64,000 bases of DNA from Chryseobacterium lathyri (GTDB lineage Bacteria > Bacteroidota > Bacteroidia > Flavobacteriales > Weeksellaceae): positions 1,922,001 to 1,986,000 of the forward strand of contig NZ_JAUSSF010000001.1 in the NCBI RefSeq assembly GCF_030812195.1, written 5' to 3'. Under the pieces are notes generated by a model. It saw nothing but the letters and a program-made list of their open reading frames with translations, did no database searches and was not told where the DNA came from. Within the stretch, counting starts at the first letter, position 1. Each line of letters opens with the position of its first letter. A program made the translations under genes and the position numbers. Positions 14,921 to 64,000 of the stretch are shown here, one piece after another.

Positions 14921-14941
14921 TTAAGATTTGAATAAAATTTT

Positions 14942-15271
14942 CTAAGGATAAGGAGCAATCTCCACTTCAAGACCTTCCATAGCATCCATCATATGCAGCT
15001 GGCATCCCAATCTGCTGTTGTCTTTTACATGGTAAGCTTCCGCCAGCATAGCATCTTCTTCGTCTCCCATAGGCTCAAGGCCCGGATCATTGATCACATA
15101 TACCTGACATGAGGCGCACATCGCCATTCCCCCGCATACTCCGATGGTACCTTCTTCCGCCAGTTCATAAGAACGGATGATCTCCATCAGGTTCATAGAC
15201 ATATCTGTAGGTGCTACAACATCATGGGTTACCCCTTCCCGATCCGTGATCTTTATATTAATATCTGACAT
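14942..15271 (-). CDS. fdx: [2Fe-2S] ferredoxin, adrenodoxin/ISC type
   Basis: Small electron carrier. Cluster ligands are visible as Cys-x5-Cys-x2-Cys (GVCGGMAMCASC) and a distant fourth Cys (RLGCQL). The acidic EPMGDEEDAMLAEA segment between them is typical of adrenodoxin-type ferredoxins. 109 residues. It follows the NAD(P)H:ferredoxin reductase gene by 12 bp, so the reductase is very likely its electron donor. A -7-like box TAATTTTG at 15279-15286 (minus) overlaps the end of the reductase gene and could add independent transcription. Confidence 0.93.
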   Translation of the reverse strand: MSDINIKITDREGVTHDVVAPTDMSMNLMEIIRSYELAEEGTIGVCGGMAMCASCQVYVINDPGLEPMGDEEDAMLAEAYHVKDNSRLGCQLHMMDAMEGLEVEIAPYP

Positions 15272-16339: not shown

Positions 16340-16495
16340 AATAAAAGATAATTTAATTATACATGTAGCTGCAAATTTACTAATTTTAATGCGAAGCATA
16401 TTTAATTGATTCTAAATAAAAACCTGAGATTTATCAAATCTCTGTAAATAGTTAAGGATCTTAAATTTGGCAATGTTTTTGTTAAATGTCATATC

Positions 16496-49283: not shown

Positions 49284-50300
49284 ATGAGCGACTCTATAAT
49301 TTTAGGTATTGAATCGTCCTGCGACGACACCTCAGCAGCTATCATCAAGGGAAACTGTATTCTGTCCAACATTGCTGCGAATCAGGCCATCCACAAAGAA
49401 TATGGAGGTGTGGTTCCGGAACTGGCATCGCGAGCGCATCAGCAAAATATAATCCCCGTTGTTGAAAAATCTCTTACTAAAGCAAATATACAACAAAATG
49501 CTATTTCAGCTATAGGATTTACACGCGGTCCCGGACTTTTAGGATCACTTCTTGTAGGAACATCATTTGCTAAGTCTTTGGCAATGAGCTTAAATGTTCC
49601 ATTAATTGAAGTAAATCATCTCCAGGCACACATTTTAGCCCATTTCATTGAGGATGCAAATCCTATGCCGCCTCAATTCCCTTTCCTGTGTCTTACGGTT
49701 AGCGGAGGTCATACGATGATTGTATTGGTGAAGGATTATTTTGATATGGAAATTATAGGTAAAACAATAGATGATGCTGCAGGAGAGGCTTTTGACAAGA
49801 TTGGAAAGATTTTTGACCTTGATTATCCTGCCGGACCTATTATAGACCGACTCGCCAAAGAAGGAAATGCTGATGCTTTTACATTCAACAAGCCCAGAAT
49901 GGAGAATTATGATTATTCATTCAGCGGAATTAAAACTTCAGTTCTTTATTTTATTCAGAAAGAGGTGAAAAAAAATCCGGATTTTATTAAAGAAAACCTG
50001 AATGATCTGTGTGCATCGGTTCAAAGAACAATTATTGAGATTTTGATGGCTAAACTTGAAAAAGCAGCCAAAGAATTAAATATAAAAGAAGTGGCCATCG
50101 CCGGTGGAGTTTCTGCCAATTCTGCTTTGAGAAAAGCAATGGAGGACAATCATGAAAAATTAGGCTGGAATATCTACATTCCAAAATTTGAATATACAAC
50201 TGATAATGCTGCGATGATTGCCATGGTTGCTCAATTGAAGTTTGAAAGAGGTGAATTTACGGATCTGAGAACTTCCGCAACTGCAAAATATGATTTATGA
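49284..50300 (+). CDS. tsaD: tRNA N6-threonylcarbamoyladenosine transferase TsaD
   Basis: Transfers the threonylcarbamoyl group to A37 of ANN-decoding tRNAs. It begins ILGIESSCDDTSAA, has the metal ligands HLQAHILAH and the LTVSGGHTMIV and FSGIKTS segments, and ends GRGEFTDLRTSA-like. 338 residues. Its start is 4 bp from the start of the divergent tamB-like gene, so its promoter must lie inside that gene's coding region. It overlaps the next gene by 4 nt (ATGA). Confidence 0.96.
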   Translation: MSDSIILGIESSCDDTSAAIIKGNCILSNIAANQAIHKEYGGVVPELASRAHQQNIIPVVEKSLTKANIQQNAISAIGFTRGPGLLGSLLVGTSFAKSLAMSLNVPLIEVNHLQAHILAHFIEDANPMPPQFPFLCLTVSGGHTMIVLVKDYFDMEIIGKTIDDAAGEAFDKIGKIFDLDYPAGPIIDRLAKEGNADAFTFNKPRMENYDYSFSGIKTSVLYFIQKEVKKNPDFIKENLNDLCASVQRTIIEILMAKLEKAAKELNIKEVAIAGGVSANSALRKAMEDNHEKLGWNIYIPKFEYTTDNAAMIAMVAQLKFERGEFTDLRTSATAKYDL

Positions 50301-50707
50301 AAATATTATTAGAAGAAAAAATACTGGGAACGCATTCTAAAAAAAATTCAAAATATTACTGGGTTTTAGAAACCGTTATAGGAAAAAATGAAGTGACAGA
50401 AAAATCTGAAGACGAAGATTATTTAATGATAAGTTCAGAAATTGGATATGTTCAAAATATAAAGGAAGAGATCATAGAGAAGATCAATTCAGAAAATGTA
50501 TTTAGTTTTACTTACGAACCCAAAGAAGGAGATTACTTATCCATCAAAAATAATTTAAGAAAAAACGAATACTTGAATTTAATTTTTATGAATAATAAGT
50601 GGGTTGAAGAAATTTACGCATGTTCATACAGAGATTGTGAAGGTGATATTTATACCACGATAAAAACCGGTGTAGCATTTTTAAGCGATAATGAAATTAC
50701 CTTTTAG
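50297..50707 (+). CDS. Protein of unknown function coupled to tsaD
   Basis: 136 residues, starting in an ATGA overlap with the tsaD stop. Acidic and beta-rich (YYWVLETVIGKNEVTE, EEIYACSYRDCEGDIYTTIKTG), no membrane segment. Not recognised. It separates tsaD from rsmE and is more AT-rich than either, so it may be a later arrival. Confidence 0.65.
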   Translation: MKILLEEKILGTHSKKNSKYYWVLETVIGKNEVTEKSEDEDYLMISSEIGYVQNIKEEIIEKINSENVFSFTYEPKEGDYLSIKNNLRKNEYLNLIFMNNKWVEEIYACSYRDCEGDIYTTIKTGVAFLSDNEITF

Positions 50708-50753
50708 TCATCACTTCTAAAATAAAATTCAGGCGCATTCTAAATATCAATAT

Positions 50754-51455
50754 ATGAAACTTTTTTTTGGCGAAATCAATAATGGAAAAGCAATAATTAA
50801 TGACGAAGAACAGCAGCACATTGTGAAAGTCCTTCGTATGAAAAATGGTGAAGATATTCATGTCACTGACGGCAAAGGAATTGTTGCTTCCGGAAAGTTA
50901 ATTATTGAAGGAAAGAAAGCCGGCCTGGAAGTTTCTGAAATTAAAACAGATATTCCGGATTTTAGTCCCCGACTTCATATTGCCATTGCTCCAACGAAAA
51001 ATATCGACAGGATTGAGTTTTTTGTTGAAAAAGCTGTGGAAATGGGTATTTCAGAGATCAGTATTATTATCACAGAGAAAACTGAACGTAAAAATATTAA
51101 TATTGATAAGATCAGAAAGCAGGCTGTAGCCGCCTCCAAGCAAAGTCTGAGGTTTCATTTCCCTGTCATCAATGATGCAGTGAAACTCACTGATTTCTTG
51201 AAAAACATTGATCCGCAACATACTTTTGTGGCACACTGTCATGAAAAGCTTGAAAGGATTGAGCTTAACCAAATTCCTGCTTTGGAACAGATCACTTTTT
51301 TAATTGGTCCTGAAGGAGATTTTTCTGAAAGGGAAATTCAATTTCTGTCCGGCAATAATGTAAAAGCAGTTTCACTTGGTAACCAAAGGCTGAGAACAGA
51401 AACGGCCGGTGTATTTGTAGCGGCCTGGAATTATTCCAAAATGATGAGAGGCTAG
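50754..51455 (+). CDS. rsmE: 16S rRNA m3U1498 methyltransferase RsmE
   Basis: 233-residue SPOUT methyltransferase. An N-terminal PUA-like domain (EEQQHIVKVLRMKNGEDIHVTDG) is followed by the SPOUT knot motifs FLIGPEGDFSEREIQFL and SLGNQRLRTETAGVFVAAW that bind SAM. It fits the translation theme set by tsaD upstream and the TrmH-like enzyme downstream. Confidence 0.95.
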   Translation: MKLFFGEINNGKAIINDEEQQHIVKVLRMKNGEDIHVTDGKGIVASGKLIIEGKKAGLEVSEIKTDIPDFSPRLHIAIAPTKNIDRIEFFVEKAVEMGISEISIIITEKTERKNINIDKIRKQAVAASKQSLRFHFPVINDAVKLTDFLKNIDPQHTFVAHCHEKLERIELNQIPALEQITFLIGPEGDFSEREIQFLSGNNVKAVSLGNQRLRTETAGVFVAAWNYSKMMRG

Positions 51456-51496
51456 GGATCAGAAGCGTATATTCATCAATAAATCAACAGCTCAGC

Positions 51497-52168
51497 CTAA
51501 ATTTTCAGATTATGATCTCTAAGATATTTTTCAAAAATCTGCTGGCCACTTCGCATTGAGTTTACAGCCCACCGGATCTTCATTTTCATCTGTTTTTCTT
51601 CATTGAGCTTATAATCAATATCTGATTTAATAAGCTTCTGCTTCAGTTCGTACATACAGATGCCTGCGGCTACGGAAACATTGTAGCTTCTTGTAAGACC
51701 AAACATTGGAATGGCTAATGTTTCGTCTGCAAAGTCTAAGACTTCTTCTGAAACGCCTTCCTTCTCAGTTCCGAATACCAGGGCGATAGGTTCCGTAATC
51801 TGATAATCAGGGAGCATCACTGCATTTTTCTCTAATGATACGGCAAGAATTTTATAACCTCTGTCTTTGATATCCTGTAATGAAGCTGTATTTTTAGGCA
51901 TTTTCTCTACTTCTACCCAGGTTTCAGCACCTTTGGTTACGGTAAGATTGGGATCAAAAACATTCTCCTCCTCCATTGCTACTACCTTGTGGAAAGCGCA
52001 GGCTTCCACAGACCTTATAATAGCCGCTGCATTCCTGAACTGGTAGACATCATCCATCACAGGAAGAACAAAATCGGAACTTTCTTTGGAGAAATGTTCT
52101 ATTTTTGAGAGTCTTTCCTCTGTTAAAAACTGCTTTAAGTATTCAAAAGTTTGCGCTAAATCTTCCAT
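51497..52168 (-). CDS. TrmH-family tRNA/rRNA 2'-O-methyltransferase
   Basis: 223-residue SPOUT enzyme. Motif 1 is VYQFRNAAAIIRSVEACAFHKV, where the catalytic Arg lies; motif 2 is LVFGTEKEGVSEEVL and motif 3 is IPMFGLTRSYNVSVAAGICMYEL. The C-terminal helices (MKIRWAVNSMRSGQQIFEKYL) are like TrmH, which makes Gm18 in tRNA. The motif 3 core is FGLTRSYNVSVA rather than the commoner SLNVSVA, a mild variation. The substrate site is inferred only. Confidence 0.9.
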   Translation of the reverse strand: MEDLAQTFEYLKQFLTEERLSKIEHFSKESSDFVLPVMDDVYQFRNAAAIIRSVEACAFHKVVAMEEENVFDPNLTVTKGAETWVEVEKMPKNTASLQDIKDRGYKILAVSLEKNAVMLPDYQITEPIALVFGTEKEGVSEEVLDFADETLAIPMFGLTRSYNVSVAAGICMYELKQKLIKSDIDYKLNEEKQMKMKIRWAVNSMRSGQQIFEKYLRDHNLKI

Positions 52169-52249
52169 TCATTTTCAAATCTTTGCAAATTAACGTAATT
52201 TTGGGCTATGAACCTGAACGAGGCTCAATTTCTTAGAAAAAAGTAATTC

Positions 52250-53266
52250 ATGAAACGAAAAGTCCTGCTCATCTATACCGGAGGAACCATCGGTATGGAA
52301 AAAGATTATGAAACCGGAAGCCTCCGCGCATTTGATTTTGGAAATATTTTCGAAAAAATGCCCGAGATGAAATTAATGGAATGCGAAGTGTTTGTCCATC
52401 CATTCGCAAAACCACTGGACTCTTCGGATATGGGACCTGAAGAATGGAAGGTTATTGCTAATTATATTCTCAAAAATTATGAACTGTATGACGGTTTTTT
52501 GATCCTTCATGGAACGGATACGATGTCTTATACAGCTTCTGCATTAAGTTTTATGTTGAAGGGCCTGAGAAAACCTGTAATTATGACAGGTTCACAGCTT
52601 CCAATCGGAGATTTGAGAACGGATGCGAAGGAAAATCTTCTGACAAGTCTTTATTATGCCAGCCTTTATGAAAATGATGAAGCGGTTATTCAGGAGGTTG
52701 CCGTTTATTTTGAATATAAATTATTAAGAGGAAACAGAACCTTAAAATATTCTGCCGAATATTTTGATGCTTATGCAAGTCCGAACTACCCGATATTGGG
52801 ACAATCCGGCGTTCATTTAAATATCATCAAAGATAATCTTTACCGTTGTGATCCTGATATAGAATTTCATGTGGATGAACATATTTCTGAAGATATTCTG
52901 TTCTGGAGAATTTTTCCGGGCATGCATCTGAGCCACTTTAAAGAAATCCCTAAAATGAAGGTTTTAATTCTTCAGGTTTTCGGATCAGGAACCATTTTCA
53001 GCAGTGAAAAAACACAGGAAACGCTTGAGGAAATCAGAAACAACGGAACAGAAATCGTTGTGGTGAGCCAGTGTATCTCAGGAGGTATTTCGTTCGGAAA
53101 GTATGAAAACAGTAATATTTTTTCAAGGATCGGAGCCATCAGCGGAAAGGATATGACGGCAGAAAGTGCTATCAGTAAAGCGATGCACCTGATAGACAAT
53201 CCGAACTATTCCGGAACCTTTGCAGATAACTTTACCAAGAGTCTTTGTGGAGAAATTACTGAGTAA
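52250..53266 (+). CDS. ansA: Type I L-asparaginase, cytoplasmic
   Basis: 338 residues without a signal peptide. The first catalytic Thr is in LLIYTGGTIGM and the second catalytic set in ILHGTDTMSYTASALSFML; GSQLPIGDLRTDAKENL is characteristic of the AnsA type. Converts asparagine to aspartate and ammonia. It is the last core gene before the tRNA-Ser and the accessory region. Confidence 0.95.
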   Translation: MKRKVLLIYTGGTIGMEKDYETGSLRAFDFGNIFEKMPEMKLMECEVFVHPFAKPLDSSDMGPEEWKVIANYILKNYELYDGFLILHGTDTMSYTASALSFMLKGLRKPVIMTGSQLPIGDLRTDAKENLLTSLYYASLYENDEAVIQEVAVYFEYKLLRGNRTLKYSAEYFDAYASPNYPILGQSGVHLNIIKDNLYRCDPDIEFHVDEHISEDILFWRIFPGMHLSHFKEIPKMKVLILQVFGSGTIFSSEKTQETLEEIRNNGTEIVVVSQCISGGISFGKYENSNIFSRIGAISGKDMTAESAISKAMHLIDNPNYSGTFADNFTKSLCGEITE

Positions 53267-53279
53267 TTTTAAATAATAA

Positions 53280-53310
53280 TTTGCAGATTCCAGAAATTAG
53301 CCTATTTTTG
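53280..53310 (+). promoter_or_regulatory. tRNA-Ser promoter, Bacteroidota consensus
   Basis: TTTG at 53280-53283, 19 bp, TATTTTTG at 53303-53310. Both boxes match exactly; the tRNA begins 12 bp later. Confidence 0.8.
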
Positions 53311-53321
53311 CAGTCTCAAAT

Positions 53322-53408
53322 AGAGAGGTGTCCGAGTGGTTGAAGGAGCTACCCTGGAAAGGTAGTATACGGGTAACTGTATCGAGGGTTCGAATCCCTT
53401 CCTCTCTG
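53322..53408 (+). tRNA. tRNA-Ser, anticodon GGA
   Basis: 87-nt class II tRNA. Acceptor arm AGAGAGG pairs with CCTCTCT, discriminator G; anticodon stem CTACC/GGTAG encloses CTGGAAA, anticodon GGA (reads UCC/UCU). The long variable arm and the T-arm loop TTCGAAT are clear. CCA is not encoded. A hairpin (about 53419-53445) with a T-rich tail follows as terminator. Everything to the right is accessory, so this gene is a likely integration point. Confidence 0.96.
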
Positions 53409-54168
53409 CAAGCATTAATTGAAATCCGTTGAAAACCAACGGGTTTCTTTGTTTTCTATAGATTTATTCCCCACTGCAAAGTTATAACGTTTTATATTAA
53501 TTTGCTTAAAAATGAGCTAAAAAGTTTTTAATTGATTAAAATACTATAATTATTTCTTTGCTTAACCACTCTCATAAATTAATAGCTATGCAGGCTCTTA
53601 CAGAAATCAGTAAGACAGCTACGAAAATATTGTATCTTTTTCGGACTATAGAAAAGTTTTGGGAAATTATTTTCCAGAATGAAAATTTATGAATCCCTAC
53701 CCCCTCTTAAAAAATCGACTTTCCTTTTGAGCAAAGAGGGGGTAGTTTTATACACAGACCTTACCGCTCCATTTTTTCTAAAAATTTTTAAAGTAGTTAG
53801 CTGCTGAATAATCTCAGACGGTCAACAAACGTACCCCAGTTTTTCCGCTTTAAAATAAATTCTGGCAATTCTATCACTTTTATAGAGATAAGGCTTAAAA
53901 CAGAACACAGTACAGCGCTAAAAACGCCAATGCAAGTCTTGCTCAATCGACAATTTACCAAGCAAAATATAAAACCTAGCAAACAGTTTACCAGAAAAGG
54001 GTTAAGTTATTTACATGGTCTTAATTATTTGTGAATATGAATACTTTTCTATAAGACAATGAGATATAGAGAATATGTACCATTATCTCGCTCTGAGAGT
54101 AAAAATAATTTGAACATTTAATATTAACGTAATGCGTATATTTAGGCGTTAACAGAAATTGTAAAAAA
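53409..54168. other. Gene-free spacer at the start of the accessory region
   Basis: About 760 bp with no gene I accept. It holds the tRNA terminator hairpin, a perfect 12-bp inverted repeat CTACCCCCTCTT / AAGAGGGGGTAG (53697-53708 and 53734-53745, 25-nt loop, T-rich tail), and at the right end GCGTATATTTAGGCGTTAAC (54134-54153), whose TAGGCGT recurs inverted at the end of the 60,017 repeat. A 61-codon minus frame at 53797-53982 is probably remnant sequence. Confidence 0.5.
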
Positions 54169-54933
54169 ATGATTGAAAAAAATCAGGATGAAATATTTGT
54201 TGAAAATGCTTTCAAAAATTTAATGGAAATCTATTTTAATCCAGAAATTGAAAGAAGAAAAAAAAATAAAACACTAGATGAAAGTTTTGAACTATATGCT
54301 GCACAAGCTTTAATATTTCCAGATGAAAGACAAAATATTATTAGACTTAATGGTGAAGTTAATGCTAAAGTGAAAATAAAAGAAGGAGTTGACAAATCTG
54401 TTAAAGATTTTTTTCCAAATTCTGAAGATGTTGAAGCAATTGATATTAATGAAGAAGAATATTTAGACTGTGGACACATCATAATAATTCGTTTTACAGA
54501 TTGTTACCAATTAAAATTTGATTTTGTATATAATAAAAAGTCTTGTAAAAAATTACTTGATAATTCAATACAATTTCTAAAAACAGCTGATTATGCGTTA
54601 AATAATGATTTTCATAATGCATATATAGATAATGCTTTCAGCGCATTTGAGTTAATGGCCAAAGCTAATCTTTTGTTTGAAGCTAACGAAAATATCGGTA
54701 TGAAATCAAATCATAAATCAATTAATCAAACGTTTAATTTAAGATATAAGAATTCTAGCCATGAAGATGAATTAGAATTAAGACGAGCTTTCAACAAATT
54801 ATCAAATGAACGTAGAAATGCAAGATATTTAGATAATGAGGTAAACTTAAATAAAGAGGAGTTAATTTCTAGTTTAGAAAAAATAAATAAATTTTATTCG
54901 AACCTTATAAATAGAATAAATAAATTTGAATAA
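54169..54933 (+). CDS. HEPN-like domain protein of unknown function
   Basis: 254 residues, strongly Lys/Asn-rich. The N-terminal half is unknown (ends about residue 120 with QLKFDFVYN). The C-terminal half is an all-helical pair like HEPN domains: FLKTADYALNNDFHNAYIDNAFSAFELMAKANLL and a late FNKLSNERRNARYLD. HEPN RNases use Rx4-6H near the second helix; here RRNARY has no His in place, so it may be a non-catalytic HEPN. First gene of the AT-rich island after the tRNA. Defence or toxin-antitoxin function is a guess. Confidence 0.6.
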   Translation: MIEKNQDEIFVENAFKNLMEIYFNPEIERRKKNKTLDESFELYAAQALIFPDERQNIIRLNGEVNAKVKIKEGVDKSVKDFFPNSEDVEAIDINEEEYLDCGHIIIIRFTDCYQLKFDFVYNKKSCKKLLDNSIQFLKTADYALNNDFHNAYIDNAFSAFELMAKANLLFEANENIGMKSNHKSINQTFNLRYKNSSHEDELELRRAFNKLSNERRNARYLDNEVNLNKEELISSLEKINKFYSNLINRINKFE

Positions 54934-54993
54934 AACAGATGTAGAATATAAAATTATAAGAAATCATAAGTTTAATCAAGATAGAATATATTA

Positions 54994-55338
54994 ATGGAAG
55001 AAATTTACAGAGGAATAATTAAATATAATGAAGGTTTAAATGATTATGGATATTTTAATTTATTTACGAATAATGAAGAAATTTATTTGAAAATATTGCA
55101 TAAAGGAATTGGTTTATTTTCGAATGATTCGAATTTTAATAGTGTAAAATTTGAATTTAAATTGTCAAAACAAATTAAAGAAAATGAAAAACAAAATTTC
55201 ATTATAAAATTTCCTAGTGAAAAACCAGAGCATTTTTATAAATTAGAAATTGAAAAAGATTTAGAAAGTATTTCAATTTTATTATTTATTTCAGGTTATC
55301 CTAATTATCCAATAAAATTTACTGGAGCTAAAATCTAA
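54994..55338 (+). CDS. Small protein of unknown function
   Basis: 114 residues, AT-rich, same strand as and 60 bp after the HEPN-like gene. Alternating strands (EEIYRGIIKYNEGL, GYFNLFTNNEEIYLKI, NFIIKFPSEKPEHFYKLEIEK) suggest a small beta domain. No signal peptide. Not recognised. It may form a pair with the upstream gene. Confidence 0.55.
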   Translation: MEEIYRGIIKYNEGLNDYGYFNLFTNNEEIYLKILHKGIGLFSNDSNFNSVKFEFKLSKQIKENEKQNFIIKFPSEKPEHFYKLEIEKDLESISILLFISGYPNYPIKFTGAKI

Positions 55339-55344
55339 TATAAC

Positions 55345-55446
55345 TTCTGCTAACATTATCATGGCAAAATGTGGGGCTTTTATTTAATTTAGACAATCTG
55401 AAAAAGCATTAGCTTTGCTCAGTCTGAATTGAACTTTTAGTTAAAT
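55345..55446 (+). repeat. Foldback element after the 114-residue protein (weak cassette-site candidate)
   Basis: Starts with CTAACAT (55350-55356) 11 bp after the gene's stop, the same word that opens the two 104-bp repeats. A central hairpin pairs CTGA/TCAG and AAAGC/GCTTT around 55398-55422. GTTAAAT at 55440-55446 fits the GTTRRRY core of integron attC sites. The match to the other elements is partial. Confidence 0.35.
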
Positions 55447-55510
55447 CCAGACCGTACTTCACCAATACTTTTTATGGTACAGGCAATTACTTCCAACACC
55501 CTTTTAAAAA

Positions 55511-56698
55511 ATGGAAAAATTTCAACTTGATAATCAGTCTTTAACTGTCAATGCTTTTTATAATGAAATGGAAATTTCCCAAAATGGAAATTTTATTCAA
55601 AAAATTAGAGGAATTTCTATTGAACCTATTCAGGTAAGAATAGAGCCTCTTAAAATTAAATTAAATTTAACAACTAAAGGACAAAATAGAATTTCTGTAG
55701 AAAAGGATTTATTTAATGGAGTATATTATACAAATGTATTAGACTATTCTTTAGGTGAAATTTCATATTTTGCAAACTTCATAACTGAAATTTGGGCAGA
55801 AAAAGTGTGGAATTTATTAATTGAGCATAAGGAAAATCAATTAATAATTACGTTGCAAGATGAAACGATAAAGAAACTTTTAATACAAGAAAACCCATTA
55901 ATATTTAAAAGTAATGAAGATATTGATGAATTTTGTAAGAAGTATAATCTTAGAATTGAAAATTTTGTTTATGCCGGAAAATTTGAAAATTTAGAAATTG
56001 AATTAGAAGGAATTTCAGCAAGATTATCATCAGAAATCATTTTTTTTAGAAAAAAGATTTTTACCGAGCTTTTAATACAAAAACTAAATTCTAGAATATA
56101 TAAATACGAGGATGTAAATAATTATTCCCTACCATTAAAGAAAAAAGAAATTTTTCTGAATTGGAAACAAAAGCAAATTGATGAAATAGGAATTGTTCAA
56201 AAATTTATACAATCTCCTTTCACATTTGATAACTTAGAACAATTTTCTTCTTTTCAGTCTTTGAATGATTTTTCAGCCAAAAATTATTCTCAACAGGATT
56301 TAGTTTCTGAAACACTTTATTGGTTAAATAATTTTTCAAAAGCTAAAAAAAGATTTGAAATTGCATTAAATCATTATAGCAAAAATGAAGATTTAAGAGA
56401 TGGTGTTGATAATTTAAGATTAACATTAGAGTTATTGCTAAAAGAGGTGTTTTGTAATAATAAAAGTCTTGAAAACCAATTATCCGAAATTGGTAAATAT
56501 CAAAAAGATTTGGGAATAAGTAAAGAAATAAGAAATACGTTTCAGAAAACAATTGAATATTATAATACATATCAAAATGAACATGTTAAACATGACGATA
56601 GTATTTCTAATAAGCATGAAGCAGAATTCATTTTTGGTTTAACTATGTTGTTTATCAGAATGCTAATAAAACCAAATCCAAAATTTAGTTCATTGTGA
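55511..56698 (+). CDS. Protein of unknown function with HEPN/Abi-like C-terminal helices
   Basis: 395 residues, Asn/Lys/Ile-rich. The N-terminal 200 residues are beta-rich and unknown. From about residue 265 it is helical (YSQQDLVSETLYWLNNFSKA, LRDGVDNLRLTLELLLKEVF) and ends with NEHVKHDDSISNKHEAEFIFG then LTMLFIRMLIK, a layout seen at the C-terminus of abortive-infection and HEPN-like proteins. It stands alone on the plus strand between two foldback elements, like a single-gene cassette. Confidence 0.55.
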   Translation: MEKFQLDNQSLTVNAFYNEMEISQNGNFIQKIRGISIEPIQVRIEPLKIKLNLTTKGQNRISVEKDLFNGVYYTNVLDYSLGEISYFANFITEIWAEKVWNLLIEHKENQLIITLQDETIKKLLIQENPLIFKSNEDIDEFCKKYNLRIENFVYAGKFENLEIELEGISARLSSEIIFFRKKIFTELLIQKLNSRIYKYEDVNNYSLPLKKKEIFLNWKQKQIDEIGIVQKFIQSPFTFDNLEQFSSFQSLNDFSAKNYSQQDLVSETLYWLNNFSKAKKRFEIALNHYSKNEDLRDGVDNLRLTLELLLKEVFCNNKSLENQLSEIGKYQKDLGISKEIRNTFQKTIEYYNTYQNEHVKHDDSISNKHEAEFIFGLTMLFIRMLIKPNPKFSSL

Positions 56699-56745
56699 CT
56701 GACTATGATATTGTATTGGCAAAATGCAAAGCGAAACAACTTCAT

Positions 56746-56849
56746 ACGTTCTCCTAACATTTCCAGACTCCAGCCCCTCAAATTATTTTTTGACACCGAT
56801 ATACCAGAAAAAAAAGATAAGGGCTAGAATCTTTGAACGCTAGGGTAAA
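56746..56849 (+). repeat. 104-bp cassette-boundary repeat, left copy
   Basis: Shares most positions with the copy at 60017-60120 in the same orientation: TTCTCCTAACAT at the start, AGCCCCTCAAATT and TTTTTGACAC in the middle, GATATACCA, GGGCTA and AATCTT. The inner arms 56766-56776 and 56821-56831 pair with two mismatches. It lies between convergent genes. Confidence 0.8.
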
Positions 56850-57084
56850 AAAGCTTTTATTGTCGTGTAGAAGACCGTATAAAATATTCTTTAGATACAA
56901 ATCTTATTTTAAAATTAATTTTGAATACCTCATTTTGATTGATATTGATTCTAAAAAGTCATATTGATCCATTAAATGTCATTTTACCAAGTAAAACGAA
57001 AATCACACTAAACAGCCTATCAGTAATGTTTAAAGATATTTATAAAGTATTTATTACGCATAAGTCTCGGAGAGCTGGTAGAAA
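56850..57084. other. AT-rich spacer
   Basis: No gene or clear signal seen; short open frames here have no start or composition in their favour. Confidence 0.5.
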
Positions 57085-57444
57085 TTATTCTCTCAACTCC
57101 AAAACTTTTTCTATTGATTTGTTAACAATATCCATCAACTGAGAAGTTGTACCTACAAAATTTATTTTCCCTTCTAAGTCTAAGAAAAATTCTTTTTCAG
57201 AAGAAAATGGTTTTGTCTTTGATAATTTAATTAATGCTTTAGAAGTGTAATTCTTAACCTTATCAAATTGTTTATCAAAACTCCCTAAATGCTTTGCAAA
57301 AGAATCTCCGTTTTCCATAGTCATTGCATTTTGCATAAAACTTAAATCTGCACCGTTCTTTGCTCCTCTTGAACACTTGAAAGCTATACGAACTAAATTC
57401 TCATATCTCGATGCTTGTGTGTAAAATTCTGTACTCATATTCAT
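57085..57444 (-). CDS. Protein of unknown function, last of a four-gene block
   Basis: 119 residues, helical and Lys-rich. ASRYENLVRIAFKCSRGAKNG then SFMQNAMTMENGDSFAKHLGSF are its most distinctive parts. Its ATG overlaps the stop of the upstream gene by one base (TAATG), so the two are translationally coupled. Not recognised. Confidence 0.6.
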   Translation of the reverse strand: MNMSTEFYTQASRYENLVRIAFKCSRGAKNGADLSFMQNAMTMENGDSFAKHLGSFDKQFDKVKNYTSKALIKLSKTKPFSSEKEFFLDLEGKINFVGTTSQLMDIVNKSIEKVLELRE

Positions 57445-57851
57445 TATTTTAATAAGGATGTTAATGATACTGTCAATAATGCTCCAACTGCCGCTCCAAT
57501 TAGCGTAGCAAGTAGGACATTGCTACTCAATTTATTCCACATTCTCATGTAATAATCTGGATTAAGTTTTTTCTTTTCTTCTTCTACCCATTTATAAGCA
57601 CCTTTGAGTTTTGCAGAAGCAAAATTATCTCCTTCGCTATACTCAAAAGATTCTACATCATCTTTATTTTTAATCACCTTTCTTGTCAGAACTTTATACT
57701 GAACTAATTGGTTAGCCATTAAATCCTCAAAATTTGGATTATTTTGTATTTTAAGAATATATCTTCCCTCTCGACTTACGGTTTGCATTATTACATCCAT
57801 AATTCTTCTTTCATCATCAATTCCCATTATACGAAAAGTTATTGTTGCCAT
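57444..57851 (-). CDS. Protein of unknown function with C-terminal membrane anchor
   Basis: 135 residues. A soluble N-terminal domain (TFRIMGIDDERRIMDVIMQTV, SREGRYILKIQNNPNFEDL) ends in one membrane helix (VLLATLIGAAVGALLTVSLTSLL) at the extreme C-terminus, a tail-anchored layout. Part of the block with the DUF2971 and DUF3800 genes, 56 bp after DUF2971. Confidence 0.6.
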   Translation of the reverse strand: MATITFRIMGIDDERRIMDVIMQTVSREGRYILKIQNNPNFEDLMANQLVQYKVLTRKVIKNKDDVESFEYSEGDNFASAKLKGAYKWVEEEKKKLNPDYYMRMWNKLSSNVLLATLIGAAVGALLTVSLTSLLK

Positions 57852-57907
57852 ATCATCAATTATTTTATAATATATACATTCAATCTTTTATGGTTATTGG
57901 TTTTAAA

Positions 57908-58969
57908 TTAATCTTGTAGCACTATTTGTTTTAAGTCAATTAATTTAAAAACATTTTCAGATACTTTTTCTAAATTAATTTTGCCAAGACTTCTTACTAG
58001 AGTATTTCCATTTTCATATTCACCAGACATATATAGATTGTCATTGAAATTTTCAGCAAGGTGATTAACTAATTCAATAAATAATTCATCATTTTCTTTA
58101 TTTTTTTCATCATCTCTTCTATAAAGTGTAAATATATTACCCTCATTAACGAATTCACAATTTTTGCCATTAAAAAAGTGTTTTCCTAAACTTATTGAAT
58201 GTATTGAATCTAGTGAATAATGAAAAAAACGATTGTCAGAACCTTCATAATCATTTGTATCAGGATACAAATTACTGAAGGGGATACCCATATCATTTTT
58301 ATAGATAGATAATCTCCATTCGTTTTCATACTCCCATTCATTTCTTTTTATGGTTGTAGCATATAAAAACGAAACATCAGGTGTTGAAAAATCCTTTGAA
58401 AATACATCAATAAATTCTATGTTTTCAACATATTGCACTGGGCGAAAACAATAGTTGTTAACATCTTTATTGATTTTAATACTATCTAACAATTTTTTTG
58501 TATCAAATTCAATCACAAAACCTGTTTCATTTGTATAGTGAGACCACATTAAAATATTGAACGGTATTGTGGTTAATGATATTATGCCAAAATTTCTTGA
58601 GAATGTTGTATATATAGCATTTCTTATATCATAAAATTTTCGCTTTTTATCTTCTTCATATAAACTTCCAAAATCGTGTTTTAAAAACTCTTCACGGTTT
58701 ATTATTCTTTCATAAAAACTAATATATCTTTCTTTAGAAATATTTCTAAAATCCAAAATCAATTCAGAACTATCAATTGAATCATTAAACAAAAATGGAT
58801 GAGTAGCATAAAGTTTTAAATCTTTTAATGCAGTTATCGAATTTTTTGTTATTGAATAATATTTGTAAATTTCTTCAGGAGTATCTCTTTTGGGATTAAC
58901 TTCTACAATGTGATTATTATTTTTGTCTAAAATATAAGTGAAATCCTTGTAAGTGTATTTTTGTTCCAT
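57908..58969 (-). CDS. DUF2971-family protein
   Basis: 353 residues. The family signature is clear: YKYYSITKNSITALKDLKLY and HPFLFNDSIDS near the start, PFNILMWSHYTNETGFVIEFD in the middle and KRNEWEYENEWRLSIY later. DUF2971 proteins are widespread in mobile and defence-rich regions but no activity is established. It is preceded 41 bp upstream by the DUF3800-like gene. Confidence 0.85.
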   Translation of the reverse strand: MEQKYTYKDFTYILDKNNNHIVEVNPKRDTPEEIYKYYSITKNSITALKDLKLYATHPFLFNDSIDSSELILDFRNISKERYISFYERIINREEFLKHDFGSLYEEDKKRKFYDIRNAIYTTFSRNFGIISLTTIPFNILMWSHYTNETGFVIEFDTKKLLDSIKINKDVNNYCFRPVQYVENIEFIDVFSKDFSTPDVSFLYATTIKRNEWEYENEWRLSIYKNDMGIPFSNLYPDTNDYEGSDNRFFHYSLDSIHSISLGKHFFNGKNCEFVNEGNIFTLYRRDDEKNKENDELFIELVNHLAENFNDNLYMSGEYENGNTLVRSLGKINLEKVSENVFKLIDLKQIVLQD

Positions 58970-59010
58970 GTATTAATTAGAGTTTAAATGGTTGGTGAAA
59001 ATTAATTATT

Positions 59011-59784
59011 TTATATTATTAACTCGATAGCTTTTTGTAAAATTTGTTCATTGATATCTAAAAAGTGAAAAAGTCCCTTACCACTTAATTCAACCATATT
59101 TTTATAACAGTCGATTGTTAATAAAGATTTTTCAAGATTTAAATTTCCACTATCATATTTATCTTTAGATAATTTGGATTTTCTAAATAAATATCCTACA
59201 AAATCAGGAAGGAATAAGAGACTTACTTTTGATTTTTCACAAAAGGTCATTTGTTTTAAAATAAAATTTTCATTGGGAAAAATAAACTCATCAGTATCAT
59301 TAACTCCGTAAACATTCCTGTCAAAATACATAATAATGTCTTTTGTTAATAAACTACTGTTGATATCTCTTAAATATGTATTCAAAATAATTAAATAATA
59401 AAATAATGCTTGAAATTCAGAATTATTAAAGTTTAATATTTCATTATTAAACTTATTTAATATTTGAGTCTTATTAAAAAACAAATCTTTTTGATACTTA
59501 TAACAAAAACAGTGTAATTTGTTTTTGATTATTAATGAAACTAAATCAGTCATTAATTTTTCTCTTGGTTTAGGCTCCTTAAATAGCTTATTTGAATGTA
59601 GTGTAGATGATTGTATTCTATGCTTTGAAATTATTGCCTTTAATTGTGCATCTATTTTTGCGACATCGTTTTTATTTACTGCAATTCCTAAATAATAAAT
59701 TGCATTTTCTATATCGCCATTTTTAATACTAAATTTAGTCTCATCACAAAAAAATAGAGTATTTATATTGTCATTTTTAGACAT
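59011..59784 (-). CDS. DUF3800-like (RNase H-fold) protein
   Basis: 257 residues from the ATG at 59784 (an ATG at 59811 is also possible). The pattern fits DUF3800: an acidic start NTLFFCDETKFS, a middle LHSNKLFKEPKPREKLMTDL, an Asp in IIMYFDRNVYG, and a late LPDFVGYLFRKS like the family's ADxxA helix. The fold is predicted RNase H-like; activity is not proven. First gene of a four-gene minus-strand block bounded by the two 104-bp repeats. Confidence 0.65.
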   Translation of the reverse strand: MSKNDNINTLFFCDETKFSIKNGDIENAIYYLGIAVNKNDVAKIDAQLKAIISKHRIQSSTLHSNKLFKEPKPREKLMTDLVSLIIKNKLHCFCYKYQKDLFFNKTQILNKFNNEILNFNNSEFQALFYYLIILNTYLRDINSSLLTKDIIMYFDRNVYGVNDTDEFIFPNENFILKQMTFCEKSKVSLLFLPDFVGYLFRKSKLSKDKYDSGNLNLEKSLLTIDCYKNMVELSGKGLFHFLDINEQILQKAIELII

Positions 59785-60016
59785 GAGTAAATATTTATGA
59801 AAATTATTCAATAATTAAGCTTTAGATATACCTGATAAAACTATTTTACAGATTTATTCTTTGCGTGTACTTGATGGAAATTTTATGGTTATGCTATTTT
59901 CTTACAAATTAAGAAAAAATATATCCTCACTATATGGGAAACCGTAATTGTTTTGACAAAATATATTTGAAAGAACAACAAATAATGTATTATTTTAAAT
60001 TAATAGATTTAAGAAT

Positions 60017-60120
60017 ACATTCTCCTAACATATCACGATTTTAGCCCCTCAAATTTATTTTTGACACTGATATACCAAAAGCAATAGAAACGGGCTAAAA
60101 TCTTGATACGCCTATGTAAA
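60017..60120 (+). repeat. 104-bp cassette-boundary repeat, right copy
   Basis: Second copy of the element at 56746, in direct orientation, 3271 bp away. Its inner arms GATTTTAGCCC (60037-60047) and GGGCTAAAATC (60092-60102) pair perfectly over 11 bp, and TATCA/TGATA extends the foldback outward. The end ACGCCTA is the inverse of TAGGCGT found at about 54145. Confidence 0.85.
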
Positions 60121-60126
60121 TATCAA

Positions 60127-60510
60127 CTAATTCTTTCCACCAATCCAAGTCCCATCCATACTTGTTGAAGTATTTATCCATGTCCCATTTGCATTATTCC
60201 CACTCATTTGTCCCGTGAATGTCGCCCCCGAACTGGCATTCCCAGCAATTGCAGAGAAATTTCCAGATTCCGAAACATTACCGTTTACGTCAAAGTCCTC
60301 ATTAAATACGGCTGATGTTGTTGTACCTGTAACCTTACCTGTTGAACTTACATCAATCTTAAATGTCCCGTGGTCTTTTGCTCCGGAATAGCTTCCAGAC
60401 CATTTACCCTGAAAAGGGAATGCTTGATTATTGTTATCATCATTGCTTGAACACGATAAAATGAAGGCACTGAAAATGATTGTTAATGTTACAAAAATTA
60501 GTTTTCTCAT
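60127..60510 (-). CDS. Small lipoprotein of unknown function
   Basis: 127 residues. The signal ends FILSCSSNDDNNN, a clear Bacteroidota lipobox with Asp/Asn after Cys that suggests surface export. The body is Gly/Ser/Thr-rich and beta (GKWSGSYSGAKDHGTFKIDV, GKVTGTTTSAVF, FTGQMSGNNANGTW), like small lipocalin-type or PKD-less lipoproteins. No family recognised. Confidence 0.7.
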   Translation of the reverse strand: MRKLIFVTLTIIFSAFILSCSSNDDNNNQAFPFQGKWSGSYSGAKDHGTFKIDVSSTGKVTGTTTSAVFNEDFDVNGNVSESGNFSAIAGNASSGATFTGQMSGNNANGTWINTSTSMDGTWIGGKN

Positions 60511-60611
60511 AATGTTAAAGTTTTTATTTGTTAATAATTAAATTTTAATTGATAAAAGTATTCTGTATTTATGATGGTTTCTTACGGATAACCGTAAATA
60601 ATAAGAGTTGG

Positions 60612-61049
60612 TTAATATTGACCTTTTTCTTGTTCTTTGTTTTTGCTCAACTGCTTTTTGGTATATGTAAATACATTGATGAGTAAAAGCACATCAATAA
60701 TTATTATTACTAATCTTACAAACCAATCTTTTAAAATCAATGATCCTAAATCCAGATTCAAAGATTCCTTGTAAAAGAATGGGAGGTAGAAAAGAATAAA
60801 AATGAATGTTCCTGATAAACCTACTACAGCTACTAAAACAGGTATAACAGTAAACACATAACTAATTTTATATTTTTGAGAAATTTGAAATAATCCTAAA
60901 CAAGCTATAACCAACCCAAATATCAACTCTACATCACTATCATGATTATAACCATGTATGATTAAAGTAATACCGCCTAAAACAAAGCCAACGAAGAATA
61001 TTAGGAATATAAATAAACGTGCAAAAATGTACTTCGTGTTGATTTTCAT
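60612..61049 (-). CDS. Small membrane protein of unknown function
   Basis: 145 residues with four hydrophobic helices and a short basic C-terminus (KKQLSKNKEQEKGQY). No family recognised. It lies between the lipoprotein gene (101 bp) and the exported protein gene (142 bp) on the same strand. Confidence 0.65.
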   Translation of the reverse strand: MKINTKYIFARLFIFLIFFVGFVLGGITLIIHGYNHDSDVELIFGLVIACLGLFQISQKYKISYVFTVIPVLVAVVGLSGTFIFILFYLPFFYKESLNLDLGSLILKDWFVRLVIIIIDVLLLINVFTYTKKQLSKNKEQEKGQY

Positions 61050-61191
61050 GATGGTAGTTTATTAAAGTTATTAGAAAGGGATAATAAATAGGCTTAATCT
61101 TAGCATATACATACCCTTGATTTTTCGATTATCTTTTTAAATTGATGTACTAACTATAGAATTCCATAACAAGAGGGAAATTATGGGGATG

Positions 61192-61815
61192 TTAGTCATT
61201 ATTTGAAGAATAAATGCTAGAGATAAGATTATTATTCATATCAATAACAATTGTTACTGTTGAATGCAAATCTTTCCAAATGTATTTTGTTATCTTTCCT
61301 GTTATAATTGTCTCATAATTTGGACCATAAACTTTCTTAGCTAGATCTAGCAATTTTGAAACCTCAAGCATATCCCCAACTGTTTCAAAAGAATTTCTCA
61401 TTTCTTTATCAAGTTGAATTTTTTGTAGCTTACCTTTTGAATTGAATTTTACAAAGCCATTTTCAAGATTATAAACAACGTATTTTTGAAACTCAATTTT
61501 CGATCTATCTAAATCTGATTTACACCTACTCATTATTCTTTCAAGTTTGCCTGTTTGAAATGTAAAATCATATGCTGTTAAAATCAATTCAGCAGGTTCA
61601 ACACCTCCTTTTTTATGCCAAGATTCTCGATTTTTTGTTTCATCTTCATAATGAAATCCAAACCATAAGTAATTGTCATCATTAGAGATGTCGTCTTGAT
61701 CACCAGATTGCTTGTAATTTATTCCCATGTACCATTTATCTGGTCTTTCATAGGTTTGAGAAAATGTGGAATTATAAAAGAAAACAAGTAAGCCGAATAA
61801 ATAGTATTTTTTCAT
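61192..61815 (-). CDS. Exported protein of unknown function
   Basis: 207 residues with a signal peptide (MKKYYLFGLLVFFYNSTFSQ). The mature start TYERPDKWYMGINYKQSGDQ is followed by an alternating helix/strand domain; KITKYIWKDLHSTVTIVIDM is near the end. No family recognised. Confidence 0.65.
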   Translation of the reverse strand: MKKYYLFGLLVFFYNSTFSQTYERPDKWYMGINYKQSGDQDDISNDDNYLWFGFHYEDETKNRESWHKKGGVEPAELILTAYDFTFQTGKLERIMSRCKSDLDRSKIEFQKYVVYNLENGFVKFNSKGKLQKIQLDKEMRNSFETVGDMLEVSKLLDLAKKVYGPNYETIITGKITKYIWKDLHSTVTIVIDMNNNLISSIYSSNND

Positions 61816-61864
61816 AAGTGATTTAATCCATCAGCCCACAAGATGAAAATTAATTATTAAAAAA

Positions 61865-62013
61865 GCGTGTGGGTTCAAACCTTGTTGTAAGAGGCTCGGC
61901 AAAGCCCACAGCAAACAAGTACTAACACACGCCCGTAGGACGAGTGCATCAGACTTGTTATTCTTGCTGTTTAAAATTTTGCCGATTTCTTACAGAACAA
62001 CAGAGTTTAACGC
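61865..62013. repeat. Large imperfect foldback (149 bp) after the 221-residue protein gene
   Basis: Successive arms pair in order: GCGT/ACGC, TTGTT-GTAAGA (61882-61892) with TCTTAC-AGAACAA (61988-62000), TCGGCAAA (61896-61903) with TTTGCCGA (61978-61985), ACAGCAA (61908-61914) with TTGCTGT (61964-61970), and ACAAGT (61915-61920) with ACTTGT (61953-61958). Unequal gaps between arms leave extrahelical bases, as in large integron attC sites. Confidence 0.75.
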
Positions 62014-62081
62014 TCCTTATATTTTTAAATGTTGTTTATTTTATTTTCTTACTTTTATTTTATACAAATTTATTATTTTAT

Positions 62082-62747
62082 TTAAACTTTTAAAATCTTT
62101 CTTCCCTCCGTAATAAATTTTTGATATACTTCTGTGAAAATATCTTCTTGTTTTCTAATTTCACTCTTAGCTTTATTAAATCTTTCACTCTGTCCATATT
62201 CCCATTCAGAAGGAATGGAAACCCAGCCGTGAAGATTAGCACCAAACACATAATTGGAAAGAGTACTATCTAGATTACTTAATTCATCAAGAATCTTACA
62301 TTTCAATGCATCCAATTGAGGATTAAGAAATTCAAAATTAGGCTTTTTACTCTCTTCTAACAAATCAATCATTGTTTCTATCCTTTCCATTTTGACTGGA
62401 TGACTTGAAAAACCGTTTCCTTTTATTTCTAATATTAATTCAAGAATTCCCTCTCCATTTGAAATTTGATTAAACAATTTTCTATCTAACTCCAAAGTTT
62501 CATTGTCATATTTAAATTGTCGCTTAGTAAAGTATAGAACTAAACAAACAGACAAACAAATAACAATAAAAATCCATAGTTCTACTTTAAAATACAAAAC
62601 CTGAGACAAAGATTCTAAGATTGTTTCATTCTTATCTTTAGCAACTAAAGCATTATATATAAAAGTCACTACAGCAAGGATTATAACAGAGATTATTTTA
62701 CTCCAAACAGAATCTTTCCATATCTTTTGAAACAGTTGGACATTCAT
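62082..62747 (-). CDS. Membrane protein paired with the nuclease-module gene
   Basis: 221 residues: two N-terminal membrane helices (WSKIISVIILAVVTFIYNALVA and VELWIFIVICLSVCLVLYF), then a cytoplasmic helical region with an acidic, Leu-rich pattern and HGWVSIPSEWEYGQSERFNKA. Not recognised. It starts 7 bp after the stop of the upstream gene, so the two are surely one operon and may work together. Confidence 0.65.
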   Translation of the reverse strand: MNVQLFQKIWKDSVWSKIISVIILAVVTFIYNALVAKDKNETILESLSQVLYFKVELWIFIVICLSVCLVLYFTKRQFKYDNETLELDRKLFNQISNGEGILELILEIKGNGFSSHPVKMERIETMIDLLEESKKPNFEFLNPQLDALKCKILDELSNLDSTLSNYVFGANLHGWVSIPSEWEYGQSERFNKAKSEIRKQEDIFTEVYQKFITEGRKILKV

Positions 62748-62754
62748 AAAATTA

Positions 62755-64000
62755 TTATTCTTTTAAATTTATTATTTCTGAAGTGATCTCATTTGATTCA
62801 ATCTGAATTCCCTTAGATTTTAGTATATCTTGTATAGACGTTTTGTCAAAAGTTAATTTATCGAGCAAATACTGATGTTTTATTTCAAATGTTAAAAATA
62901 AATCATCCCAAGTCATAGCGAAAATTTCATATCTTCCTGCTTGTTGGACAAGAAAACGTTTACCTTTATCTTTAAATGCTTCATATTGCTTTAAAATATA
63001 ATCATCGACTTTATTACTGACCAAATAAAATTTCCAAATTCTTTTTTGACTGTTAAAGCCATCTTGTTTCAAAATGAAATCTAAATAATCATCAACTTGC
63101 CTAAATTCTTTTTTCGACAAAGTAACAGTCGGTCGTTTCAATTCCACAAGAATATTTTCTTCTAGCATAGAACTATCTTCCATAACATCAGGAATATTTC
63201 TTTTCCTGCAAGCAAAAATATCAGGTCTTCTTTTCCAATCATAATCTTTAATTTCTTTCTTATCTTCTATTCCATCGATTAAATAAAGATAATTATTCAA
63301 CATTACTTGAAAATTCTGATCAGATGAAACTAAATGATATTGCTCTCCAAAAAGCCAATAATTTTCTTCAATAATTTTTTGAATATGTTCTCTTTCAGTC
63401 GTAAACTTTTTTAAAGTATAAACCAATATTTTAAGTAACTCAACTGTTTTAAACCTATTCTCCAACAACTTTATTGTTTTAGTTATTTTTGACAATGAAG
63501 TTCTTTTGAGAACATCTGTTAGTTCTTCTCTTTCTTCTGTTGTGAGATGAGTTATACTTTCTATGATTCCCAGTATATTTTCTCTTTCATCAGTATCTAA
63601 TAATAAGTTCAGAAATCCAACAAATGTTCTTTCCTGTTCTTCTTTTAAACCCTTGAAAATTTTAGGCTGTACAGTATAAAGTTCTTTTATTACATTCACC
63701 AAATCCTTCTTTCTATCTTGATCATATTTATTATTAGAGAATTTTGGAAAAACTTGGTGCTTTTCAAATTTCAATATTAGTTCATCGGCACCGATACCTT
63801 TTACATACTCTTTCTGTTTAGAATTTAAATATCCATTTAAACGAGTAATAAGAGTTTTAAAAACTGGGTGATTTTGGTTTTTAAAAAATAAACTATCCTC
63901 TATTTCAGATATATTATTTTCTGCCTCAAAATTGTTAAAAAATGATGATTCAATATATACACTATGGTGAAAATCAATTGCATTATTATTGAAAGATGTT
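62755..64000 (-). CDS. C-terminal part of a large protein with a PD-(D/E)XK/Shedu-like nuclease module (5' end outside the window)
   Basis: The frame is open from its stop at 62755 to the right edge (about 414 residues visible). A TTG at 63774 could be mistaken for a start, but the 75 codons above it (HPVFKTLITRLNGYLNSKQK) continue the same protein. It has a helical domain (QPKIFKGLKEEQERTFVGFL, REELTDVLKRTSLSKITKTI), then ENYWLFGEQYHLVSSDQNF and the nuclease-like core RRPDIFACR ... ENILVELKRPTVTLSKKEFR. This C-terminus is known from large ATP-binding (GHKL-type) proteins in defence-rich regions and resembles DUF4263/Shedu nucleases; the N-terminal domain is not seen here. Confidence 0.7.
   Translation of the reverse strand, partial: TSFNNNAIDFHHSVYIESSFFNNFEAENNISEIEDSLFFKNQNHPVFKTLITRLNGYLNSKQKEYVKGIGADELILKFEKHQVFPKFSNNKYDQDRKKDLVNVIKELYTVQPKIFKGLKEEQERTFVGFLNLLLDTDERENILGIIESITHLTTEEREELTDVLKRTSLSKITKTIKLLENRFKTVELLKILVYTLKKFTTEREHIQKIIEENYWLFGEQYHLVSSDQNFQVMLNNYLYLIDGIEDKKEIKDYDWKRRPDIFACRKRNIPDVMEDSSMLEENILVELKRPTVTLSKKEFRQVDDYLDFILKQDGFNSQKRIWKFYLVSNKVDDYILKQYEAFKDKGKRFLVQQAGRYEIFAMTWDDLFLTFEIKHQYLLDKLTFDKTSIQDILKSKGIQIESNEITSEIINLKE

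What the first reader, a model, noticed from the sequence alone, without database searches (positions are those of the whole stretch)
56746..60120. Two 104-bp direct repeats with palindromic cores bound a 3.3-kb four-gene block
Copies at 56746-56849 and 60017-60120 are the same length, the same orientation and mostly identical. Each folds back on itself (11 of 11 paired bases in the right copy). They enclose exactly the DUF3800-DUF2971-135aa-119aa minus-strand block. Such elements between unrelated AT-rich accessory genes look like recombination sites of mobile gene cassettes. They do not show a clean GTTRRRY/RYYYAAC pair and no integrase gene is in the window, so either this is an integrase-less attC-like array or a different, undescribed Bacteroidota cassette system.
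Basis: partly seen in the sequence, partly recalled or inferred. Interest (0 to 1): 0.78.

Follow-up and report, generated by a model that had tools for sequence, protein, structure and literature searches.

The report
Gene-swap repeats of Chryseobacterium islands
The two repeats belong to a small family of DNA elements, found in a survey of Chryseobacterium species only inside five related mobile islands, where several borders between different gene blocks (some predicted to be anti-phage defence genes) fall on the elements' conserved edge, so they likely act as the points at which cargo genes are swapped.

Summary
The repeats are real: 106 bp, 77% identical (81% over the best 90 bp), same strand, far beyond chance. 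Only the right copy folds better than shuffled DNA. They are two of 18 elements (types R, J, K, A; 1-7 per island) that a family model finds in 5 of 173 Chryseobacterium genomes. Four islands adjoin a tRNA gene, the fifth a tRNA-Ser fragment. The window's island spans 53397-68421 in tRNA-Ser, with a tyrosine integrase 2.7 kb past the window edge.

Three sets of cargo junctions (R2, K, J) fall within 17 bp of a core (CTNAAC|RTAYC). Best case: a 2.3-kb two-gene unit. G134 has J-genes-J, G117 at the same tRNA-Arg has one J, and that J switches from one parent copy to the other within 8 bp of the core. The flagged four-gene block is not one unit: DUF3800-DUF2971 is swapped against other genes, while 135aa-119aa-R1 is inherited separately. 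Most homology ends (53 of 63) lie elsewhere. No integron integrase passes its cut-off in 4 genomes, and attC boxes are not met.

Likely an integron-like exchange-site family with unknown recombinase; homologous recombination between linkers is not excluded.

The parts
53322..53409 (+). tRNA-Ser(GGA), the island's integration site; 16 bp of its 3' end (53397-53412) are repeated at window coordinate 68406-68421, beyond the window
53815..53928 (+). Element J: family member at the tRNA end of the island; single here, double (J2/J1) in G134
54169..54933 (+). 254-aa HEPN-domain gene, cargo
54994..55338 (+). 114-aa gene, in a 444-bp stretch absent from the G132 island
55511..56698 (+). 395-aa gene, PADLOC PDC-S32 (predicted defence candidate)
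56743..56853 (-). Element R1 (the finding's left repeat), 3' of the 119-aa gene
57085..57444 (-). 119-aa gene; its DNA is shared with G132 together with R1 (82-aa ORF there)
57444..57851 (-). 135-aa gene; homology with G132 ends at its start codon
57908..58969 (-). 353-aa DUF2971 protein (PADLOC PDC-S31); replaced in G132 by 504aa-188aa
59011..59811 (-).
60014..60123 (-). Element R2 (the finding's right repeat), 3' of the 127-aa gene; 92% identical to the element behind the same gene in G134
60127..60510 (-). 127-aa lipoprotein-like gene in front of R2; an intact homologue precedes R in G134, and a homologous stretch without a listed ORF of 80 aa or more precedes R in G132 and G139
60612..61049 (-). 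145-aa gene of the R2-127aa-145aa-K unit shared with G134
61084..61200 (-). Element K: family member in inverse orientation to J and R
61859..62061 (-). ~200-nt conserved hairpin-forming stretch of related islands (not an R-family member)

Best explanation
The two repeats are members of an island-specific family of ~105-115-bp elements that likely serve as the sites at which cargo gene blocks of a tRNA-borne mobile island are inserted and swapped, probably by strand exchange at a conserved core (CTNAAC|RTAYC in the J-type orientation) at one end of each element. Shown: the family, its confinement to five islands in the genus survey, different gene blocks beside the same element in different islands, several homology breaks at the core, and a two-gene unit present between two J copies in one island where another has a single, hybrid J that switches parents within 8 bp of the core. 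Inferred: that exchange at the core is site-specific and that the core is cut by a dedicated recombinase. The recombinase is unknown. The two island integrases compared are barely alike (21% over the catalytic part), so either it acts in trans or a host enzyme does it.
For: Family model: all 18 matches of 40 bits or more among 173 genomes lie in five islands; the next place that is not itself a known element scores 23 bits (only 21 first-look candidates per genome were scored). All 18 are the sequences the model was built from, so the search shows confinement, not membership. Membership rests on held-out profiles in about 0.2 Mb of island DNA: R+K finds 5 of 5 J elements at E 2.6e-5 to 3.6e-3; R+J finds A at 1.5e-5 and 1 of 5 K elements below 0.01 (G134's, 7e-6). 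Both relative orientations of R were tried and the better value is given. The 127aa-R unit is followed by three different neighbours in four genomes; among the three with an intact core, homology ends 8-17 bp past it. K of the window and of G134 share the gene side, and homology ends at +6 of the core. J: in G117 the informative columns -13, -9, -7, -4 all match J2, and 22 of 24 from +4 on match J1. 10 of 63 homology ends lie within 20 bp of a core against 0.9 expected from position alone. R lies 3' and K 5' of genes, J either way, so the element is not tied to one place in a transcript.
Against: 53 of 63 homology ends are not at a core, including 57852 (135aa start), 54934 (254aa stop), 54169 and 64938. 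The 10-of-63 count is not independent, since element ends are natural ends of homology. A 75-bp motif shared by J's flank and the 119aa 3' flank could have produced the G117 arrangement by ordinary homologous deletion. The J body stays while the gene beside it changes (254aa in the window and G132, 318aa in G134, 136aa in G117). The core of R in G139 is decayed while its neighbour is the same as in G132. The window's own J does not resolve the crossover (10/16 against 9/16 on the core half). K1 and K2 of G132 and K of G117 have no clear core, and 4 of 5 K elements are not found by the held-out R+J profile at E below 0.01.
Confidence: 0.42

Rival explanations
1. The elements are conserved linkers: RecA-type homologous recombination between ~100-bp repeats and other shared intergenic stretches shuffles cargo between related islands, with no dedicated site or recombinase.
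For: Many breaks lie at other shared intergenic or gene-edge sequences; intergenic stretch 55378-55473 is also shared with G134 around different genes; a 75-bp motif beside J recurs beside the 119aa gene; islands in the same tRNA could meet in one cell.
Against: J1 and J2 of G134 are only 73-76% identical, poor substrate for RecA; the resolved crossover lies within 8 bp of the core, about a 7% chance if uniform over the element (own estimate).
Confidence: 0.33
2. K and R are terminal inverted repeats of a small non-autonomous transposable unit (R-127aa-145aa-K), and the other copies are solo or degraded ends.
For: K and R are in inverse orientation; window 60013-61184 and G134 3040742-3039570 match over 1185 columns at 84.7% with both ends at cores and different outer neighbours.
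Against: No copy of 40 bits or more outside the islands in 173 genomes; J, R and A (13 of 18) share one orientation within their islands, only the 5 K are inverse; no target duplication seen by eye; no transposase among the island proteins scanned.
Confidence: 0.12
3. R is a 3'-UTR RNA hairpin or terminator carried with its gene, and exchange borders fall beside it only because genes are swapped whole.
For: All 7 R copies lie 3' of a gene or gene remnant; in R1 and R2 the sense strand folds better; the stem predicted on that strand holds more G.T than A.C cells (43 against 5; inner 12-pair stem 7 against 1, a count that leans to the strand used for the prediction); some covariation.
Against: Related K and most J lie 5' of genes and no consensus pairs are shared; no T-run follows R; the left window copy folds no better than shuffles; no copy elsewhere in the genome and no Rfam match.
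Confidence: 0.1

Closest known systems
Integron attC sites / CALIN clusters
   Same: Imperfect palindromes of about 100 bp (type R) between accessory genes; gene plus site on its 3' side for R; a conserved core with GTT (R: GTTAGGA) at the border to the next block; several copies per array.
   Different: No IntI over its cut-off in 4 genomes; RYYYAAC/GTTRRRY not met; hairpin not shared by the family; sites also lie 5' of genes and in inverse orientation. Integrons are rare in Bacteroidetes: IntegronFinder 2.0 names one complete integron there, in Salinibacter ruber M1 (PMC9024848, passages read).
Defence hotspots of P2-like phages and P4-like satellites (PMC9122126, passages read)
   Same: Variable predicted defence genes swapped inside a conserved mobile frame; the authors speculate on recombination routes, homologous recombination among them.
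   Different: Here a repeated non-coding element lies between blocks, up to seven per island.
tRNA-integrated genomic islands with tyrosine integrase
   Same: Integrase, HTH_17 excisionase-like gene, tRNA 3'-end direct repeats.
   Different: That explains the island, not the internal repeats.
Xer-dependent pdif modules of plasmids (recalled, not tested)
   Same: Gene modules bounded by short recombination sites used by a host recombinase.
   Different: pdif sites are 28 bp (recalled); these are about 105 bp with one conserved core; no Xer test was made here.

Membership tests
Integron / CALIN | Integron integrase IntI in the genome | tested here: not met
   TIGR02249: 0 of 4 genomes (G000, G132, G134, G139) over the 265-bit cut-off; best 81.8 bits; the profile also rings, below its cut-off, in all 14 control genomes. 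G117 was not tested; IntI acting from elsewhere is not excluded.
Integron / CALIN | attC core boxes RYYYAAC and GTTRRRY | tested here: not met
   Read: the 3' box is GTTAGGA or GTCAGGA in R (decayed in G139), GTTTAGA in A, and GTTCAGA, GTTCGGA, GTTTGTT or GTTCGTA in J; the 5' box is CCCTAGC in R1. Box rule recalled.
Integron / CALIN | Foldable imperfect palindrome conserved across sites | tested here: not met
   R only: 7 copies with some covariation; 0 consensus pairs over 18 members. The sense strand folds better in R1 and R2, opposite to attC as recalled.
Integron / CALIN | Cassette gain or loss with crossover at the core | tested here: inconclusive
   Met for J in G134/G117; R2 and K breaks at the core; 53 of 63 homology ends elsewhere; no empty site for the flagged block.
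REP / scattered transposon-end family | Copies scattered over the genome without link to gene-block borders | tested here: not met
   The own genome's 4 copies of 40 bits or more lie in one island; none elsewhere (large-survey filters are strict).
tRNA-integrated genomic island | Integration at a tRNA 3' end with direct repeat and integrase | tested here: met
   Window island: tRNA-Ser repeat 53397-53412 / 68406-68421, integrase 66669-67979; G132 and G134 likewise. Not shown for G117 and G139: no integrase recognised by eye in the ORF lists read (no domain search of those lists), and for G139 no TIGR02249 match listed in that stretch.
Known RNA family | Match to an Rfam model | tested here: not met
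   At E <= 1 only the tRNA and a sub-threshold hit overlapping it in 50000-64000.

The most novel reading that the evidence does not exclude
A cassette-exchange system of Bacteroidota that is not an integron: ~105-bp sites with a 17-bp core, distributed through tRNA-borne defence islands with unrelated integrases, at which a trans-acting or host recombinase inserts and removes defence genes at the AAC|RTAYC core.
Probability: 0.28. Interest if true: 0.8.

Novelty: new variant of a known kind. Interest (0 to 1): 0.5.

Why it matters
How defence islands exchange single genes while keeping their frame is open; the P2/P4 paper calls for experiments on the recombination route (PMC9122126, passages). 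A repeated element with a mapped core gives a concrete, testable exchange point in a phylum where integrons are rare. If the rivals are right, it still documents island-specific linkers that mark module borders.

Tried and rejected
Wider homologs: the first DNA queries gave short hits (20-60 bp, E 5e-4 to 1e-2) in 8 further genomes for R1 and 22 for R2; these were dropped as chance. With covariance model R1, G108 (30.1 bits) and G285 (35.7 bits) appeared; judged by eye on the sequence printed (G285 shows an unrelated short inverted repeat) they were dropped. Outside the genus the best family match is 21.9 bits (326 genomes drawn from the order). Plasmid and phage records: no match for R1 (plasmids), R2 (phages), J (plasmids) or the 127-aa protein (plasmids). 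Viral contigs: 0 for two DNA patterns; none for the 135-aa protein. The named genome scan found one contig, Chryseobacterium sp. OSA05B = G132.

Generalisation: 20 further loci that carry a relative of the 479-aa island protein, plus G054's island and one viral contig (L189), hold no R-family element (22 sources, best 11.5 bits). Internal repeats of 40-400 bp occur in 11 of the 20 loci; six of these were looked at and were paralogous genes, terminator-like hairpins, a repeat beside tmRNA or a 73-bp repeat. The other five were not followed, except that one coincides with duplicated tRNA-Phe.

First reading of R_G139 as a junction exactly at the core was withdrawn: its neighbour is the same as in G132, so the core is decayed. 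R and J were first read as one orientation, then as opposite; the profile runs favoured J(+) = R(window +), though A scored better the other way (1.5e-5 against 0.0086).

The idea that an origin-nicking protein uses the hairpin was set aside: the 479-aa island protein looks, weakly, like a family A DNA polymerase. It was not otherwise tested.

Literature: searches (listings read) showed no description of these elements; passages were read of PMC9024848, PMC3025954 and PMC9122126. The library lacks most subscription papers and all preprints.

Note: session note 4 gives the right att repeat as ending at 68424; one search bears out 68421.
Full report
OBSERVATION. They form the longest direct-repeat family of 50000-64000 (106 nt, 77% identical, spacing 3271) with a self-BLAST E of 4.6e-17. 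The right copy folds far better than shuffles; the left does not. The block between them is as listed, except that DUF3800 is not confirmed by Pfam at E <= 0.01.

WHERE IT LIES. The genus is Chryseobacterium: G132, called 'same genus', has the contig length (1058782) and the repeat spacing of Chryseobacterium sp. OSA05B. The window holds most of a ~15-kb island: tRNA-Ser(GGA) at 53322-53409, 16 bp of its 3' end repeated at 68406-68421, and beyond the window edge a 436-aa tyrosine integrase (66669-67979), a 94-aa HTH_17 protein and a 424-aa protein. G132 carries a related island in the same tRNA. G134 carries one in tRNA-Arg(TCG) with a barely similar integrase (21% over the catalytic part, E 0.008). 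G117 (same tRNA-Arg) and G139 (beside a tRNA-Ser fragment) look like remnants: by eye no integrase stands in the ORF lists read, but those lists were not searched with domain models.

THE FAMILY. By DNA the repeats have close relatives in G132 (3), G134 (1) and G139 (1). Comparing the islands showed further repeated intergenic stretches, J, K and A. Profiles with one subtype held out link them: R+K finds 5 of 5 J; R+J finds A and 1 of 5 K at E below 0.01. The selection of K and J preceded this test, both orientations of R were tried, and K is the weakest subtype. A model of all 18 finds, at 40 bits or more, exactly those 18 places in 5 of 173 genomes: G000 4, G132 7, G134 4, G117 2, G139 1. 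In that of 173 genomes have some match at E <= 0.1; apart from the 18 and their reverse strands these score 23 bits or less and are taken as noise. In 326 genomes drawn from the order, nothing outside the genus exceeds 22 bits.

ANATOMY. R has a stem with some covariation, but no structure is common to all 18. The shared features are sequence: a core, CTNAAC|RTAYC in the J-type orientation, an inner CTGGTAT or AAGATAAG region in J and K, and a degenerate inverse of the core at the far end. Within an island J, R and A point the same way and K the other way. R lies 3' of genes or gene remnants and K 5' of genes; J lies 5' of a gene in 4 of 5 copies and 3' of the 136-aa gene in G117 (read).

JUNCTIONS. 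(a) The 127aa-R unit occurs in four genomes (an intact 127aa ORF in the window and G134; a homologous stretch without a listed ORF of 80 aa or more in G132 and G139). It has three neighbours: the 266-aa gene in the window, a 296-aa gene in G134, and a 504/508-aa gene in G132 and G139. Among the three with an intact core, homology ends 8 to 17 bp past it. (b) The unit R-127aa-145aa-K matches G134 over 1185 columns at 84.7% with both ends at cores and different outer neighbours. (c) G134 has J2-245aa-433aa-J1 where the window, G132 and G117 have one J. J2 shares the tRNA side and J1 the gene side. In G117 the core half matches J2 16 of 16 (J1 11 of 16), and the informative columns switch between -4 and +4: 4 of 4 J2 before, 22 of 24 J1 after. 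G132 agrees on the core half (14 against 11 of 16) but is mixed further right; the window's own J is ambiguous (10 against 9 of 16).

AGAINST. Of 63 homology ends in the five islands 10 lie within 20 bp of a core (0.9 expected by position) and 53 do not. Others lie at gene edges (54934, 57852, 64938) or shared intergenic stretches. The flagged block is composite: [266aa-DUF2971] is replaced in G132 by [504aa-188aa-R], while [135aa-119aa-R1] is shared. A 75-bp motif beside J and beside the 119aa gene offers a homologous route to the G117 arrangement.

MECHANISM. I commit to exchange at the core (0.42), because it explains the hybrid J, the shared borders of R and K and the mixed gene orientation. 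Homologous recombination between linkers is close behind (0.33). The recombinase is not identified: no IntI passes its cut-off in the 4 genomes tested, and the two island integrases compared differ too much to be one site-specific enzyme (inference).

CARGO. Some cargo is predicted defence: PDC-S32 (395 aa), PDC-S31 (DUF2971), and elsewhere AbiTii and a DUF3644-like protein; HEPN (254 aa) by Pfam. None is tested.

KNOWN SYSTEMS. It works somewhat like an integron array but fails its membership tests. In the searches listed I saw no description of these elements.

Noticed in passing
L050:6174-7613; window coordinates about 64938-66375 (beyond the window): The 479-aa island protein next to the integrase has no Pfam, PHROG or PDB sequence match, but its predicted fold (mean pLDDT 87) gives family A DNA polymerases as best matches (Foldseek best E 7.8e-5, but TM-score only about 0.3). 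Relatives at E <= 1e-10 occur in 41 of 171 genus genomes. The window genome's copy is broken near its 3' end.
   Followed up: partly
61859-62061: A ~200-nt stretch that folds into a long hairpin here and in G132; sequence matches in 5 of 173 genus genomes (G000, G132, G054, G013 partial, G093 weak). In the last three it lies within 4 kb of tmRNA.
   Followed up: partly
L052:12405-12490 and 13328-13412: In G139 a different 86-bp repeat with a hairpin, 91% identical, flanks a single 213-aa gene; right after it comes a fragment of the 135-aa gene.
   Followed up: no
L096:9742-9885 and 14920-15066: In G013 147-bp direct repeats (87%) flank a stretch with a 1470-aa gene.
   Followed up: no
L187:13655-13727 and 16404-16476: A 73-bp direct repeat (84%) in another island flanks a 595-aa and a 210-aa gene.
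   Followed up: no
54934-55379: A 444-bp stretch with the 114-aa gene is present here and absent in G132, with ends at a stop codon and an intergenic point, not at an R-family core.
   Followed up: no
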